Shown in pieces: positions 2,008 through 12,182 of a stretch of 64,000 nt of DNA; position 1 is the first letter of the stretch; the number at the start of each line of letters is the position of its first letter. The DNA is from Acidisarcina polymorpha. GTDB lineage: Bacteria; Acidobacteriota; Terriglobia; Terriglobales; Acidobacteriaceae. A program made the position numbers and the translations under genes. The stretch spans positions 3,782,001 through 3,846,000 of the forward strand of contig NZ_CP030840.1 of assembly GCF_003330725.1 (NCBI RefSeq). Reading direction: 5' to 3'. The notes beneath the pieces were generated by a model, which saw only the letters and a list, made by a program, of their open reading frames with translations, was not told the DNA's origin and made no database searches.

Positions 2008-2275
2008 TCAGTGACGGGAGAAGTCTACAACGATGGCAAGTAGCCATACCGCAGTGACGAGCCACCAGAGCCTTCTCTTGGACCCTCCACCGCGTAAGAG
2101 CAAGCCTCCCCATACAAGATCGGCCACGAAAAAAACTCCCAGCACCGGCAGAGCTAGAGCCCAGACGAAGGGCTCCCCGGCGACAGGAACCATCCGCTCC
2201 TGCGGTATTCGCCAGCCGCGAGATGCAAGTCATGAAGGTAAAGCCCGATGCCGACTACGTTGGCGGCCATGAACG
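2008..2275 (-). pseudogene. Remnant of a multi-pass membrane protein (possible immunity protein), frameshifted
   Basis: Two adjacent minus-strand frames together read as one hydrophobic protein. The upstream part carries FMAANVVGIGLYLHDLHLA and the downstream part GEPFVWALALPVLGVFFVAD, ending IVVDFSRH. They are separated by a one-base frameshift near 2194; GCGGATGG would become continuous as GCGGGATGG. The N-terminus is missing because the frame runs directly into an rpsA-derived segment at 2276. It lies at the end of the RHS-derived region, where immunity genes usually sit. An immunity role is inferred from position only. Confidence 0.5.
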
Positions 2276-2418
2276 CGAAGGCGCCGTAATCGGCGAGACT
2301 CCGAACGACGCCCTGCACGACATCGCCTTCGCGGACCTCGGAGTAGCGGCGTTCTTTCGTGACGCGCTCTTCAGCACGCGGCGATCGACCACCACGTCTT
2401 CTTCGGCGACCTCGAGCT
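2276..2418 (-). pseudogene. Displaced internal fragment of rpsA (inverted copy)
   Basis: The minus strand of this segment matches 11011-11163 of the intact rpsA gene in this window, base for base by eye, except for a 10-bp deletion (CGCCGAAGAG-type stretch) in the middle. Its translation includes EERVTKERRYSEVREGD and DVVQGVVRSLADYGAF, identical to S1-domain residues of rpsA. It is inverted relative to rpsA and flanked on both sides by unrelated RHS-region sequence. It cannot encode a working S1 domain. Confidence 0.9.
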
Positions 2419-2738
2419 CCTTGAACGTAGGCTCCTACCGCGACATTGGCTACCGGTGTGTATCCAGAGAAAAATTGTGTGACAGAACCTACCTGGAAAC
2501 GCTGGAAGTCGTAGTATCCGCGTTGCCCAACAGCGGCTCCCGCCCCTGACAGCCCATTGGTCGCTCCGTTTGCAGCTATATTGCTAACGCTAAATCCCGG
2601 CGGAGCGGGGAAGCTAGCCCCAGTGCTCGTGGTGCAATTCAGATGGTTTGCGGGAAGCGGCATTCGCTGGAAGTTACTTGGGGCAATACCAAATGCACAA
2701 GCGGCGAACCTCGTCGTACATGTAATCTCCTCCGTCAT
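2419..2738 (-). pseudogene. Remnant RHS C-terminal tail (YDFQR type)
   Basis: A frame starting about 2738 (MTEEITCTTRF) reads through RGYYDFQRFQVG and GYTPVANVAVGAYVQG before it runs into the rpsA fragment at 2418. From memory, YYDFQR...YT.ANVAVGAY tails occur at the C-terminus of acidobacterial RHS-repeat proteins; this is recollection, not a search. No RHS core precedes it, because the upstream sequence is the 3' end of a lipoprotein gene. It is therefore an orphan tail, cut at both ends and without its own obvious promoter. Confidence 0.5.
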
Positions 2739-2740
2739 AG

Positions 2741-3160
2741 CTATGGCTGTGAATCTGCTGTCCCAGGGGGAAAGCCTTGGCAAACGATTTTGGTAGAACC
2801 TACGTGATCCAGCTTCTTTGAGATGTCGATGGGTTTAAGACCACAGGAATCACAAACCACCAACAAAGTGTCAGCGCCCTGCCACCGAAGCTGCACTTTG
2901 CTGGCCCAGATAGCCACGAGAGCCGACGAATCGCCGATATGTCTCATATTGATTGCTTCATTAGCGTCTTGGCCGCTGGGAATGACGATCAAGAAAAATT
3001 CATCGGGCACTCTGGCTGCCTGATAATAACGATCAACCAAGATAGCCGAAGACTTCCTGTCAGGACTCTCCGCCTTCACAACCACGGTGTTTTTCATCGG
3101 AGCAGGCTTGCAGCCCAACAGACAGACTAGAAGGAACAGACAAATGCTGAGAACTCGCAT
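2741..3160 (-). CDS. Lipoprotein, probable immunity protein of the second toxin tail
   Basis: This 139-residue product has a lipoprotein signal, LFLLVCLLGC, with the lipid-modified Cys at residue 17. The ATG follows the TAG of the upstream toxin-tail frame with no gap (TAGATG), and a strong AAAGGAGG Shine-Dalgarno lies inside the end of that frame, so translation is probably coupled. The C-terminal CDSCGL...DISKK...CQGFP pattern resembles CRGCDI...HDGFP in the lipoprotein at 4250-4648, and the spacing to the toxin tail is the same. Two matched toxin-lipoprotein pairs suggest an envelope-anchored immunity role. No published family is recognised. Confidence 0.65.
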   Translation of the reverse strand: MRVLSICLFLLVCLLGCKPAPMKNTVVVKAESPDRKSSAILVDRYYQAARVPDEFFLIVIPSGQDANEAINMRHIGDSSALVAIWASKVQLRWQGADTLLVVCDSCGLKPIDISKKLDHVGSTKIVCQGFPPGTADSQP

Positions 3161-3582
3161 CTAGCAACCTCCTTTCTTGGCGATTGCTAGTCCTTGGCGA
3201 ATTTGCTGATTGTCAGATGGAATATCACCATGCGAAGCGGAAAAGAACGATGAGCCGTAAACGCCGCTCAGCTTTCCATAAAGGCCAGCTCCATATTGGC
3301 AGACCTGGCCTCCCAACCAAGTGTTTCCGCCAAATTGCGAACAGGTAGCGCCGAAGTTTATATTCCCAGCCGCGACGTTTTCCGGCGTCATCCCCATCGT
3401 CGTCTTTGGGTCCCACGGGCCACCCGTTTGGACTAAACCGATATAAGCACCCGCCGCGCCCCCAGCGGATGCTGCTCCTCCTGGCGACCCGGCATTGAGA
3501 AAGCCAGACCAAAACTGCCCCGCCAGACTCTTCGCAACCTGTATGTTTTGGCTAAGATTCAGCGGTCCAGCTTGGCAGTTTT
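3161..3582 (-). pseudogene. Frameshifted RHS toxin tail (Ntox44-like), second copy
   Basis: After the stop of the DUF2809::RHS frame at 3559, an overlapping frame continues with LNLSQNIQVAKSLAGQFW, then NINFGATCSQFGG and the terminal IRQGLAIAKKGGC. The (G)N-[FV]-[NH]-[YF]-GA pattern followed by Gly-rich sequence and a late Asp/Gln-rich helix resembles the polymorphic toxin type 44 family, judged by eye. One base appears to be missing in the homopolymer at 3579-3582 (AAAA on the coding strand); restoring it would join RHS core and toxin. As read, the toxin has no start and is probably silent, while its immunity gene downstream is intact. Confidence 0.6.
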
Positions 3583-4206
3583 ATTTGGGGCAGAACCGCT
3601 TCCGGAGCCGCCGTGGCCACTAGCTCCACCATCTCCGCCATCTCCGCCGCCATAGAAGCCACCACCCCCATTAACGCAAACGGTGTCATCGTCATTACAG
3701 TTCGGGTGACGTGGACCGTCGTCTTGCAGGCCGGTTGGATCAAAGAAGCTCAGCGGATTATTCAGCACATAGGCATATCGGTTAAGGCTTGGCGGATTGG
3801 TGATATCGTACGACGTGTCCGAGTACCGCCGCCGGATGCGCTGATCGACTAGGGCACCGGCGAGGATGGCGAGCCAGTACGCTACGATGTCCCAGCCGGA
3901 GAACACCCGGCCCAGCAGCAGAACGCGCGGGAGCGTCAGCCGGAAGGCGTCCAGCCCTGGCGAGTGGCAGAGCTTGACGAACTCCGCCGCCGTCGCCAGA
4001 ACTCCGGTGAGCAGGGCAACGGCGGGGAGACGCCACGAGGGAAGCAGGGTCGAGACGATCCAGTAGACCATCAACGCCCAGAGGGTCGATCCGCCGTACT
4101 TGACCAAGAACGACGGCAAGCCCGCATGGGCGAACCGGACCGCCAGACCAGCGGCGACGGTGCCGAGCATGAGCGCCAGAGAAAGCCCGAACGGGCGGGA
4201 ACGCAT
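3559..4206 (-). CDS. DUF2809-family membrane protein fused in frame to an RHS core end
   Basis: Residues 1-131 form a four- to five-helix membrane protein with LPSFLVKYGGSTLWALMVYW and AEFVKLCHSPGLDAFRLT, which fits the DUF2809 family of small integral membrane proteins with no assigned role. From residue 132 the protein switches to RHS core sequence (SYDITNPPSLNRYAYVLNN, FFDPTGLQDD) and a Gly/Asp-rich linker, ending at a stop caused by the frameshift described for the toxin tail. A normal DUF2809 protein would stop near residue 130. The switch point at about 3813 is the edge of a 236-bp duplicated block, so the fusion looks like a recombination product. Whether it is translated is unknown. 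Confidence 0.7.
   Translation of the reverse strand: MRSRPFGLSLALMLGTVAAGLAVRFAHAGLPSFLVKYGGSTLWALMVYWIVSTLLPSWRLPAVALLTGVLATAAEFVKLCHSPGLDAFRLTLPRVLLLGRVFSGWDIVAYWLAILAGALVDQRIRRRYSDTSYDITNPPSLNRYAYVLNNPLSFFDPTGLQDDGPRHPNCNDDDTVCVNGGGGFYGGGDGGDGGASGHGGSGSGSAPNKTAKLDR
3579..3814 (-). repeat. RHS-core direct repeat, copy A
   Basis: This 236-bp block is repeated without indels at 5089-5324, offset 1510 bp, with about seven base differences counted by eye. It encodes the last part of the RHS core (RYAYVLNNPLSFFDPTGL) and the Gly-rich linker before the variable toxin. Sequences on both sides differ between the two copies. Confidence 0.92.
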
Positions 4207-4249
4207 CGGCTATAGCCCAGCCTTGTCGCAGCGATGACCTGCGGTTGGT

Positions 4250-4648
4250 TCACTTTGCCGGAAAACCATCGTGGCTAACCGTGATGCCATGCCAACTCGA
4301 CTTGGAGGTGTTCATATATTCACTCCGGATGTCACAACCGCGGCAGCTTAGAATCAGGCCGTTGCTGTTCGACCATGACATTTTGAGCGCCTCGGCATTG
4401 TTCGTGTTAAGGACTTCTTCTCTGGAGCTCTCGAAGAACTGTCTGTCTTGCCTCGGTAGTTTGTAAATAATGACTCTGTACCTGGAACTACCAGAAAAGC
4501 GGACGCACTCGTCCCGCGCCAAAACTGCCTGATGAGCGTTATCGGGCGACGTGGCTGATCGTAAAACAACCATCTCGTTGCACTGACCGCAACCAGTCGT
4601 GACCATTAGGCACATCAACCAAGCTGTCATCACTGAGAAGTTCCGCAT
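4250..4648 (-). CDS. Lipoprotein, probable immunity protein of the first toxin tail
   Basis: This 132-residue product has a lipoprotein signal peptide (LMCLMVTTGC, lipidated Cys at residue 20). The gene starts immediately after the TAA of the RHS-toxin gene (TAAATG), with a GGAGG inside the toxin's last codons, so the two are probably translationally coupled. Its C-terminal half (LILSCRGCDI, ITVSHDGFPAK) aligns by eye with the lipoprotein at 2741-3160. Base composition is visibly lower in GC than in the flanking housekeeping genes. Immunity against the adjacent toxin is inferred from position and from the repeated pairing. Confidence 0.65.
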   Translation of the reverse strand: MRNFSVMTAWLMCLMVTTGCGQCNEMVVLRSATSPDNAHQAVLARDECVRFSGSSRYRVIIYKLPRQDRQFFESSREEVLNTNNAEALKMSWSNSNGLILSCRGCDIRSEYMNTSKSSWHGITVSHDGFPAK

Positions 4649-5800
4649 TTAGCCTCCCGGGGTCCAGCCTGTGCATCCGCTGCCATTCGCGATGTCAACG
4701 CCACCCATGACGTTCGGAGCGTCGATGGCCTGATCTCCGTACGGGTAATTCACTAGCGGTAGCCCCGGCCCTCCAAAGTTATGAGGGGAAGGTATGAGAG
4801 TCGCTGCACCTGCTGCAGAACCGCACCCATACTTTCCGAAACCAAACTGAGCACAGTTTGCACCATAGTTCACGTTGCCGAAGTTGGCTCCGGCTTGATC
4901 AGTTGGGCCAGACTTGTAGTCCCAAGCTGACTGGTCGTTAAGGCCTATGGTCGAGAAAGCTGCAAACGGGTTATACGATCCCGTGGGCCAGGAACGGCTC
5001 GCGAAATTGACAAGTGCCTGAACCGTACCGTTGTTCTTGATATCGTTTTTTGTTGTAGCAACGTTGTTGGCTATAGTTGCGCAGGTCTTTTTACTTGGGG
5101 CAGAACCGCTTCCGGAGCCGCCATGGCCACTAGCTCCACCATCTCCGCCATCGCCACCGCCATAGAAGCCACCACCCCCATTAACGCAAACGGTGTCATC
5201 GTCATTACAGTTCGGGTGACTTGGATCGTCGTCTTGCAGGCCGGTTGGATCAAAGAAGCTCAGCGGATTATTCAGCACATAGGCATATCGGTTAAGGCTT
5301 TGCGGATTGGTGATATCGTACGACCCTTCGTAAGGATCAGGCGAGAGCCAGCGTCCCTGGTAGAAGGAGTAGTTACGGAACTGAGCGTGTTCGGACATAG
5401 GTGCGCCGGCGTCGTTGCCGTCCTGCTCCATGTCGGCGAAGTGGAAGTTGTCTACATCGGCCTCGGTATTGAGGATACTGGCTACGTAGCCATCACCCCA
5501 GGGCAGGGACTTGTAGGTTGCAGACGTCGTGCCGTTATGGTCAGTCCGTATGCGCTCGGTGCCGATATAATCCTGGTTCTCGAAGTAGGTGGCGGTGTCG
5601 GAGGAACGAAAGGCGATCTGCTGCCCGTCCCAATACATGCGGCCATCGGTACCATTGTTCGTGGCTGCATTCCAGGTGGAGATGCGCCTTCCCGCATAGT
5701 CGTAGGAGTACTCGCTGGTCCCTGTCGGCTTCGCCACGCTCACCCGCCGGTTCAGTGCGTCGTAAACGTAGGACGCCGTCGCGCCGCCATCGACCGTCAA
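4649..5800 (-). CDS. 5'-truncated RHS-repeat protein with Ntox44-like C-terminal toxin
   Basis: The frame holds the last RHS/YD repeats (YVYDALNRRVSVAKPTG, YSYDYAGRRISTWNA), the core terminus (RWLSPDPYEGSYDIT, RYAYVLNNPLSFFDPTGL), a Gly-rich linker and a variable tail of about 140 residues with GNVNYGANCAQFGFG. The tail resembles polymorphic toxin type 44, by eye only. A full RHS protein has over a thousand residues before this point; here nothing precedes, because the frame begins at the RNase R stop. The only start is a TTG at 5798-5800 that overlaps that stop (TTGA), with AGGAGG just upstream but very close. It may be a silent cassette or expressed by coupling to rnr. Confidence 0.75.
   Translation of the reverse strand: MTVDGGATASYVYDALNRRVSVAKPTGTSEYSYDYAGRRISTWNAATNNGTDGRMYWDGQQIAFRSSDTATYFENQDYIGTERIRTDHNGTTSATYKSLPWGDGYVASILNTEADVDNFHFADMEQDGNDAGAPMSEHAQFRNYSFYQGRWLSPDPYEGSYDITNPQSLNRYAYVLNNPLSFFDPTGLQDDDPSHPNCNDDDTVCVNGGGGFYGGGDGGDGGASGHGGSGSGSAPSKKTCATIANNVATTKNDIKNNGTVQALVNFASRSWPTGSYNPFAAFSTIGLNDQSAWDYKSGPTDQAGANFGNVNYGANCAQFGFGKYGCGSAAGAATLIPSPHNFGGPGLPLVNYPYGDQAIDAPNVMGGVDIANGSGCTGWTPGG
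5089..5324 (-). repeat. RHS-core direct repeat, copy B
   Basis: This is the partner of the block at 3579-3814, in the same orientation and about 97 percent identical by eye. Here it lies inside the longer RHS core fragment, so it is more likely to be the ancestral context than copy A, which is joined to a DUF2809 gene. Confidence 0.92.
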
Positions 5801-10493: not shown

Positions 10494-12182
10494 ATGCCTG
10501 ATTCCAACGTTCCCGAACTCTCCGCCCCTGATTTGGCCGCGGTCGAACCCGTAGAATCCTTCAGCGACATCCTCTCGCAATTCGAAAAAAACCAGGTCCG
10601 CAAGTCCGACGACGGCAGCCGTCAAATCGACGCTACGCTTGTCGCTCTAACCGCGGAATCGGCCCTCTTCGATATCGGGTTCAAGACCGAAGGCATCCTG
10701 CCGCTGGCCGCGTTTGCCGGCAAAGAGATCAAGGTCGGCGATCATTTTCAGGTCTCGGTCAAAGGCCGCGACGCCGAAGGCTACTACGAGCTCTCACTGC
10801 TTAAAGTCGTCCAACCAAAAGATTGGTCGCTGCTCGAGCAAGCCTTCAACGACAAGGAAGCGGTGCTCGGCACTATCACCGCCGTCGTGAAAGGCGGCTT
10901 GACCGTCGACATCGGAACTCGCGCCTTCATGCCCGCTTCGCGAAGCGGCGCCCGCGATGCAGCAGAGATGGCCAAGCTGATCGGCCAACAGGTGCGCGTC
11001 CGCATCATTAAGCTCGAGGTCGCCGAAGAAGACGTGGTGGTCGATCGCCGCGTGCTCGCCGAAGAGGAAGAGCGCGTCACGAAAGAACGCCGCTACTCCG
11101 AGGTCCGCGAAGGCGATGTCGTGCAGGGCGTCGTTCGGAGTCTCGCCGATTACGGCGCCTTCGTCGACCTTGGCGGCGTCGATGGTCTTCTTCATGTCTC
11201 CGATATCGCCTGGAGCCGCGTCGCCAATCCGGCCGACGTGCTTGCCGTCGGGCAGACGGTTGAAGTCAAAGTCCTGAAGATCGACCCAGAAAAGAAACGC
11301 ATCTCTCTCGGGCTGAAACAGCTCCAGCCCCAGCCGTGGGACTCCGTTCCCGACAAGTACAAGACCGGCGAGCGGGTGCGCGGGCCGGTGACTCGGCTGA
11401 CTGAGTTTGGCGCCTTCGTCGAACTCGAGCCCGGCGTCGAAGGGCTGATCCATCTCTCGGAAATGTCCTGGGCGAAAAAGGTCCACAAGCCCGGCGATAT
11501 CTTCAAGCAAGGGGAGATCGTCGAGGCCGTCATCCTCGGCATCAAGCTTGAAGAGCGCCGCATCTCGCTCGGCTTCAAGCAGCTCCTGACCGATCCATGG
11601 GCTGAAGCAGCACAGAGATTGGGACCTGGCTCTGTTGTGGAGGGACCGGTGACCAGCTTCACCAAGTTTGGCGCCTTCATTCAGGTCGCTGAGGGCCTCG
11701 AAGGTATGGTCCACATCAGCGAGATCACTGCTGAAATGCGCCTGCATCATCCTCAGGAGGCATTAAAGGTCGGCGAAGTGGTCAAAGCACAGGTGCTTGA
11801 ACTTGATAAGGAGAAGCGTCAACTCAAGCTCAGCATCAAGCAGCTCACACCCATCAGCGTTGATGAGTATTTCGCCGAACACAAGTCGGGTGACATCGTG
11901 ACTGGACGCGTGATTGAAATAGCGGACGGTTTGGCGCGTGTGGAACTAGGCGAGGGCATTTACGGCGAAAGTACAGTTCCGCAGACCAGTCAATCAGCGC
12001 TGTCAGTAACCGCGGGTGCCAAGGCGGATTTGTCCTCCTTGACCTCCATGCTGCAGGCTCGCTGGAAGGGCAGTTCACCCGCAGCCACTCCTGTACCTAA
12101 GCTTGCCGAAGGCCACATTCGGAGTTTTCGCATCAAAACTCTCGACGCATCAACCCGGATCATTCAATTGACATTAAACTGA
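10494..12182 (+). CDS. rpsA: 30S ribosomal protein S1
   Basis: The 562-residue protein consists of about six S1 RNA-binding repeats. The central ones are clear: GDVVQGVVRSLADYGAFVDL, RVRGPVTRLTEFGAFVELEP and VVEGPVTSFTKFGAFIQVAE, each followed by a VHISE/LLHVSD-type strand. S1 binds mRNA leaders on the 30S subunit and is needed for translation of weak-SD messages. Its length matches family norms. An internal 153-bp segment (11011-11163) has an inverted, 10-bp-shorter copy in the RHS region at 2276-2418. Confidence 0.95.
   Translation: MPDSNVPELSAPDLAAVEPVESFSDILSQFEKNQVRKSDDGSRQIDATLVALTAESALFDIGFKTEGILPLAAFAGKEIKVGDHFQVSVKGRDAEGYYELSLLKVVQPKDWSLLEQAFNDKEAVLGTITAVVKGGLTVDIGTRAFMPASRSGARDAAEMAKLIGQQVRVRIIKLEVAEEDVVVDRRVLAEEEERVTKERRYSEVREGDVVQGVVRSLADYGAFVDLGGVDGLLHVSDIAWSRVANPADVLAVGQTVEVKVLKIDPEKKRISLGLKQLQPQPWDSVPDKYKTGERVRGPVTRLTEFGAFVELEPGVEGLIHLSEMSWAKKVHKPGDIFKQGEIVEAVILGIKLEERRISLGFKQLLTDPWAEAAQRLGPGSVVEGPVTSFTKFGAFIQVAEGLEGMVHISEITAEMRLHHPQEALKVGEVVKAQVLELDKEKRQLKLSIKQLTPISVDEYFAEHKSGDIVTGRVIEIADGLARVELGEGIYGESTVPQTSQSALSVTAGAKADLSSLTSMLQARWKGSSPAATPVPKLAEGHIRSFRIKTLDASTRIIQLTLN

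What the first reader, a model, noticed from the sequence alone, without database searches (positions are those of the whole stretch)
2276..2418. An inverted fragment of rpsA embedded in the RHS graveyard
A 143-bp stretch matches 11011-11163 of rpsA with no base changes seen apart from one 10-bp deletion, but sits 8.7 kb away in the opposite orientation, flanked on both sides by RHS and membrane-protein sequence. High identity means a recent event. There is no IS element nearby, so template switching or double-strand-break repair with ectopic filler DNA is a likely mechanism. It also marks this region as a place that captures DNA.
Basis: seen in the sequence. Interest (0 to 1): 0.75.

Follow-up and report, generated by a model that had tools for sequence, protein, structure and literature searches.

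The report
Backwards rpsA copy patching an Rhs locus
In a soil Acidobacterium, about 195 bases of a decaying Rhs toxin-like locus were overwritten by a backwards 143-base copy of a ribosomal-protein gene lying 8.6 kb away, a rare and well-preserved scar of sloppy DNA repair but of a generally known kind and probably without function.

Summary
In detail: 2276-2372 and 2373-2418 match the reverse complement of rpsA (11067-11163, 11011-11056) at 143/143 bases, with one 10-bp gap. The window is from the Acidisarcina polymorpha SBC82 chromosome. Two of its plasmids carry the same orphan Rhs-tip/membrane-protein segment without the rpsA piece, and three other acidobacterial genomes share the native sequence. 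So this was not a plain insertion: about 195 bp of native DNA (end of the tip ORF, start of the membrane-protein ORF) were replaced by 143 bp of rpsA. One junction shares 3 bp (CGA), the other none. rpsA has no other copy in the genome, and no comparable fragment turned up in 1.2 Mb of sampled chromosome. The donor's closeness (chance about 0.002 for a random donor) and the skipped 10 bp favour local template switching during break or fork repair. Capture of a stray fragment by Ku-LigD end joining (ku and an adjacent ATP-dependent ligase gene are present) is the main rival, then SPDIR-like substitution. Reads were not available, so an assembly artefact is unlikely but not excluded. The scar most likely has no function. 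New example of a known kind of event; modest interest.

The parts
2276..2372 (-). first piece of rpsA copy, 97 bp, identical to 11067-11163 of the donor
   Evidence: 97/97 inverted match
2373..2418 (-). second piece of rpsA copy, 46 bp, identical to 11011-11056 of the donor; 10 bp (11057-11066) skipped between 2372 and 2373
   Evidence: 46/46 inverted match
2276..2278 (.). left junction; CGA shared by rpsA and the native locus (3-bp microhomology)
2418..2419 (.). right junction; no shared bases between rpsA and the native sequence
2008..2275 (-). remnant of a ~110-aa small membrane-protein gene (orphan immunity-like), start codon and first 20 codons lost to the replacement, also frameshifted
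   Evidence: homologous to plasmids C5/C4 and L019, L026, L027
2419..2689 (-). orphan Rhs C-terminal tip remnant; its last ~42 codons lost to the replacement
   Evidence: 94-95% identical to C5:8016-8286 and C4:1625-1895; outgroup L019
2741..3160 (-). lipoprotein-like ORF (139 aa), immunity-like, next to tip 2
   Evidence: ORF list; no Pfam match
3161..3397 (-). Rhs tip 2 remnant
   Evidence: resembles the tip of the plasmid Rhs protein; short DNA match at 3171-3227
3579..3814 (-). repeated piece of Rhs core end, 97% identical to 5089-5324
3825..4206 (-). DUF2809 gene fused to the Rhs core piece
   Evidence: PF10990, E 1e-16
4250..4648 (-). lipoprotein-like ORF (132 aa), immunity-like, next to tip 1
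   Evidence: ORF list; no Pfam match
4649..5794 (-). truncated Rhs core end plus tip 1; core begins directly behind the rnr stop codon
   Evidence: 93% to plasmid rhs over 704 bp; PF05593
10494..12182 (+). rpsA, donor gene, intact (562 aa, S1 domains)
   Evidence: PF00575, E 2.5e-74
11011..11163 (+). donor stretch inside rpsA

Best explanation
A templated replacement scar. While a break or stalled fork in the orphan Rhs tip/membrane-protein segment was being repaired, DNA synthesis left the native template (3 bp CGA shared), copied about 150 nt of the opposite strand of rpsA 8.6 kb away, skipped 10 bp on the way, and rejoined the native locus 195 bp from where it had left. Shown: identity, orientation, replacement, polarity, junctions, donor distance, single donor. 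Inferred: that it was copied by template switching rather than ligated in, the direction of copying, and that it is a neutral scar in a decaying locus.
For: 143/143 identical bases with one 10-bp skip. Native segment of 195/193 bp kept on plasmids C5 and C4 and, at 75-81% DNA identity, in G102 (L019), PMLC01000027 (L026) and PMWW01000109 (L027), so the chromosomal state is derived. Donor within 9 kb: about 0.002 for a random donor in 7.6 Mb. The 10-bp loss would frameshift rpsA, so it arose in the copy, as expected of low-processivity copying. Microhomology of 2-5 bp, inversions and multiple switches are the hallmarks of MMBIR, and similar complex junctions are known in E. coli (PMC2621351). 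The donor gene stays intact.
Against: Only one junction has microhomology, and 3 bp or more is expected by chance in about 5% of junctions; the right junction and the 10-bp skip have none. The skip could be a later deletion. There is only one event, so proximity rests on a single draw.
Confidence: 0.52

Rival explanations
1. Ku-LigD end joining trapped a stray rpsA DNA fragment in a double-strand break after 195 bp had been lost; the 10-bp gap is a second join or a later deletion.
For: ku with a downstream ATP-dependent ligase gene is present; one blunt and one 3-bp junction fit end joining.
Against: A free fragment should come from anywhere; a donor 8.6 kb away is unlikely (about 0.002) unless several local breaks occurred. 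The 10-bp gap needs an extra step.
Confidence: 0.22
2. SPDIR-like substitution: a single-stranded rpsA fragment annealed at microhomologies to exposed template at the fork and was built in, replacing native DNA.
For: Same outcome, a native segment substituted by a short heterologous segment of intragenomic origin (title of Harms et al. 2016, cited in PMC7192050 and PMC7997844). Left junction shows 17/40 identity around it, P about 0.014.
Against: Right junction shows no excess similarity (P about 0.2). Donor proximity is unexplained. From memory, described SPDIR patches are mostly a few dozen bases; the primary paper could not be read here.
Confidence: 0.13
3. Assembly or polishing artefact.
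For: 454 plus MinION hybrid assembly; raw reads not available; C4 and C5 differ by small indels that look like sequencing errors.
Against: The locus has chromosome-specific differences from the plasmids on both flanks, the insert is far shorter than the mean 454 read of 549 nt, and a chimera would not be expected to carry a clean 10-bp non-homopolymer deletion.
Confidence: 0.06
4. cDNA capture: a piece of rpsA mRNA was reverse transcribed by one of the genome's reverse transcriptases and used as filler.
For: Eleven RVT_1 matches in the genome; rpsA mRNA is normally abundant (general knowledge).
Against: No reason for an mRNA-derived donor to lie 8.6 kb away; no RT in or near the window was listed.
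Confidence: 0.03
5. The fragment was recruited for a function, as part of the 209-aa open frame joining tip, S1 piece and membrane-protein start.
For: The frame is open through 2154-2783 on the minus strand, and the S1 piece is in frame with the membrane-protein start.
Against: No proper start, frameshifted membrane part, both flanking ORFs truncated; no conserved relatives of the chimera.
Confidence: 0.02

Closest known systems
MMBIR / FoSTeS templated insertions (Hastings et al. 2009, PMC2621351)
   Same: Short copied filler, inverted, local, microhomology at a junction, extra small deletion
   Different: One junction without microhomology; reported mainly as amplification junctions in E. 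coli and as human/yeast events, here a natural chromosomal scar in an acidobacterium
[quoted passage not shown] 2016, known here only through citing papers PMC7192050, PMC7997844)
   Same: Native segment substituted by a short heterologous segment from the same genome
   Different: Patch is 143 bp for 195 bp (longer than I recall for SPDIR), donor is local and inverted, one edge lacks microhomology
Ku-LigD end joining with fragment capture
   Same: Genes present; blunt or microhomology joins
   Different: Local donor and inner 10-bp skip not predicted
Orphan Rhs tip/immunity modules (Koskiniemi et al. 2014, PMC3967940)
   Same: Displaced tip fragments each followed by a small ORF, downstream of an Rhs core end
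   Different: Chromosomal core is truncated and the third module is broken by the rpsA patch; toxin and immunity functions untested

Membership tests
MMBIR/FoSTeS templated insertion | insert is a copy of a template that remains in place | tested here: met
   rpsA intact at 10494-12182, insert 143/143 identical
MMBIR/FoSTeS templated insertion | 2-5 bp microhomology at junctions | tested here: inconclusive
   3 bp at left, 0 bp at right and at the inner skip
MMBIR/FoSTeS templated insertion | complexity: inversion, several switches | tested here: met
   inverted, two outer junctions plus a 10-bp skip
MMBIR/FoSTeS templated insertion | replication-dependent copying | not testable with these tools
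   needs an experiment
SPDIR | native segment replaced by a short heterologous segment | tested here: met
   195/193 bp native on plasmids, 143 bp rpsA in window
SPDIR | microhomology at both edges | tested here: not met
   right edge 0 bp and no excess similarity nearby; the definition itself is from memory, primary paper not held
Ku-LigD end joining | ku and LigD-type genes in the genome | tested here: met
   Ku at C1:1908558-1909118, ligase-domain ORF adjacent; LigD polymerase domain not checked
Ku-LigD end joining | dependence on ku/ligD | not testable with these tools
   needs mutants
Orphan Rhs modules | displaced tip followed by small ORF downstream of an rhs core | tested here: met
   window 2008-5794 and plasmid C5 2771-8758
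Orphan Rhs modules | tip toxicity neutralised by the small protein | not tested
   no informative family match for tips or small ORFs
Transposition | transposase, terminal repeats or target duplication at the insert | tested here: not met
   no transposase among ORFs scanned, no repeats at the edges

The most novel reading that the evidence does not exclude
Some bacteria have a repair route that replaces patches of 100-200 bp with inverted copies from local donors, longer and more local than described SPDIR patches, leaving scars that are detectable when plasmid paralogues keep the old state.
Probability: 0.12. Interest if true: 0.5.

Novelty: new member of a known kind. Interest (0 to 1): 0.32.

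Why it matters
Natural scars of this kind in bacteria are seldom polarised. Here the same genome holds the before state on two plasmids and three outgroups confirm it, so breakpoints, lost and gained DNA, and donor are all known. It gives a concrete template for a genome-wide search for local templated replacements across bacteria with and without Ku-LigD.

Tried and rejected
Plain insertion: rejected, 195 bp of native sequence is missing. Plasmid version as the derived state: rejected, three outgroups share it. Further rpsA fragments elsewhere: none. A genome prone to such scars: not supported; in 1.204 Mb of chromosome only 4 repeat pairs of at least 50 bp and 93% identity, and this is the only one with a core gene. 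Known RNA in the region: none. tRNA insertion site: none in the window. Matches to PLSDB plasmids near the C5 locus: only short unrelated ones. Tip and small proteins in Pfam, PHROGs and PADLOC: no informative match. The primary SPDIR paper is not held.

Full report
Observation. Window 2276-2372 equals the reverse complement of 11067-11163 (97/97) and 2373-2418 that of 11011-11056 (46/46); 11057-11066 are missing from the copy. The donor lies in a 562-aa ORF at 10494-12182 with S1 domains (PF00575, E 2.5e-74), that is rpsA. Searching the whole genome with rpsA returns the gene and this fragment only.

Source. The window is C1:3782001-3846000 of a five-contig genome. Contig lengths 7,112,011, 196,405 and 121,048 are those published for the chromosome and two plasmids of Acidisarcina polymorpha SBC82, assembled from 454 and MinION reads (PMC6252331).

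Before and after. Plasmids C5 and C4 carry the same locus at about 93-95% identity: window 1945-2278 matches C5:8482-8820 and C4:1094-1431, and window 2419-2689 matches C5:8016-8286 and C4:1625-1895. Between these blocks the plasmids have 195 and 193 bp of other sequence where the window has the rpsA piece. That native stretch encodes the end of an orphan Rhs tip ORF and the start of a small membrane-protein ORF. The same arrangement is found in G102:C3 (L019: 255-aa tip ORF, 110-aa membrane ORF), in PMLC01000027 (L026), and, with only the end of the tip left, in PMWW01000109 (L027). The plasmid state is therefore ancestral and the chromosomal state derived: a replacement of about 195 bp by 143 bp. 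It removed about 42 codons of the tip and the start codon plus about 20 codons of the membrane-protein gene.

Junctions. At the left, CGA is shared by donor and native sequence; at the right nothing is shared. Three or more shared bases occur by chance in about 5% of junctions. Around the left junction 17 of 40 positions agree between donor and native DNA (P about 0.014 against random placements), at the right 13 of 40 (P about 0.2). The 10-bp skip has no flanking repeat that would explain simple slippage, and it would frameshift rpsA, so it arose in the copy.

Mechanism. The donor is 8.6 kb away; a random donor in 7.6 Mb would fall that close with a probability of about 0.002. This favours a local template over a random free fragment. 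Copying with an inversion, a skip and one microhomology fits microhomology-mediated template switching during break or fork repair (PMC2621351). Ku-LigD end joining is available: ku at C1:1908558 with an ATP-dependent ligase ORF directly downstream. SPDIR gives the same outcome (Harms et al. 2016, cited in PMC7192050 and PMC7997844; primary paper not held) but does not explain the local donor. Reverse transcriptases are plentiful, yet a cDNA donor gives no reason for proximity. These weights are inference.

Age. Flanks differ from C5 by 20 mismatches in 598 aligned bases; half of that predicts 2.4 substitutions in 143 bp, so zero has P about 0.09. 'Recent' is plausible, not shown.

Rarity. In 1.204 Mb of sampled chromosome there are four repeat pairs of at least 50 bp and 93% identity: two in a repeat region at 3593-3629 kb that looks like mobile-element debris (not annotated here), one Rhs core repeat, and this one. 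The event is not a habit of this genome as far as sampled. The plasmids, by contrast, hold many short shared fragments.

Setting. On the minus strand the locus reads: rnr, truncated Rhs core with tip 1, lipoprotein-like ORF, DUF2809 gene fused to a repeated core piece, tip 2, lipoprotein-like ORF, orphan tip 3, the rpsA patch, membrane-protein remnant. This resembles the orphan tip/immunity arrays described in enterobacteria (PMC3967940). Toxin and immunity roles are inferred from arrangement only. No transposase was seen among the ORFs scanned in the first 14 kb.

Verdict. A real and unusually well-documented repair scar, of a known general kind, probably without function. An assembly artefact is unlikely but cannot be excluded without reads.

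Noticed in passing
window 5794-5799: The truncated Rhs core begins within a few bases of the rnr stop codon (5797-5799); in L027 the tip/membrane cassette likewise begins about 24 bp behind the purF-like stop codon. These cassettes seem to land directly behind stop codons.
   Followed up: partly
window 3825-4206: A DUF2809 gene sits fused in frame to a duplicated Rhs core piece; no second copy in this genome was found by DNA search.
   Followed up: partly
L019:260-592, L026:4097-4546, L027:4110-4439: A ~110-aa membrane protein conserved behind Rhs-type tips in several acidobacteria, with no Pfam, PHROGs or PADLOC match above cut-off (L026 form: weak TspO_MBR, E 0.003); candidate immunity protein.
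   Followed up: partly
L015 (C5) and L016 (C4): The two plasmids share many short, mosaic, rearranged fragments with each other and with chromosomal Rhs loci at about 2904 kb and 5114 kb.
   Followed up: no
C4 versus C5 copies of the Rhs locus (L016 1094-3443, L015 6467-8820): They differ largely by one- or two-base indels, often in runs, which may be sequencing errors of the hybrid assembly rather than true frameshifts.
   Followed up: no
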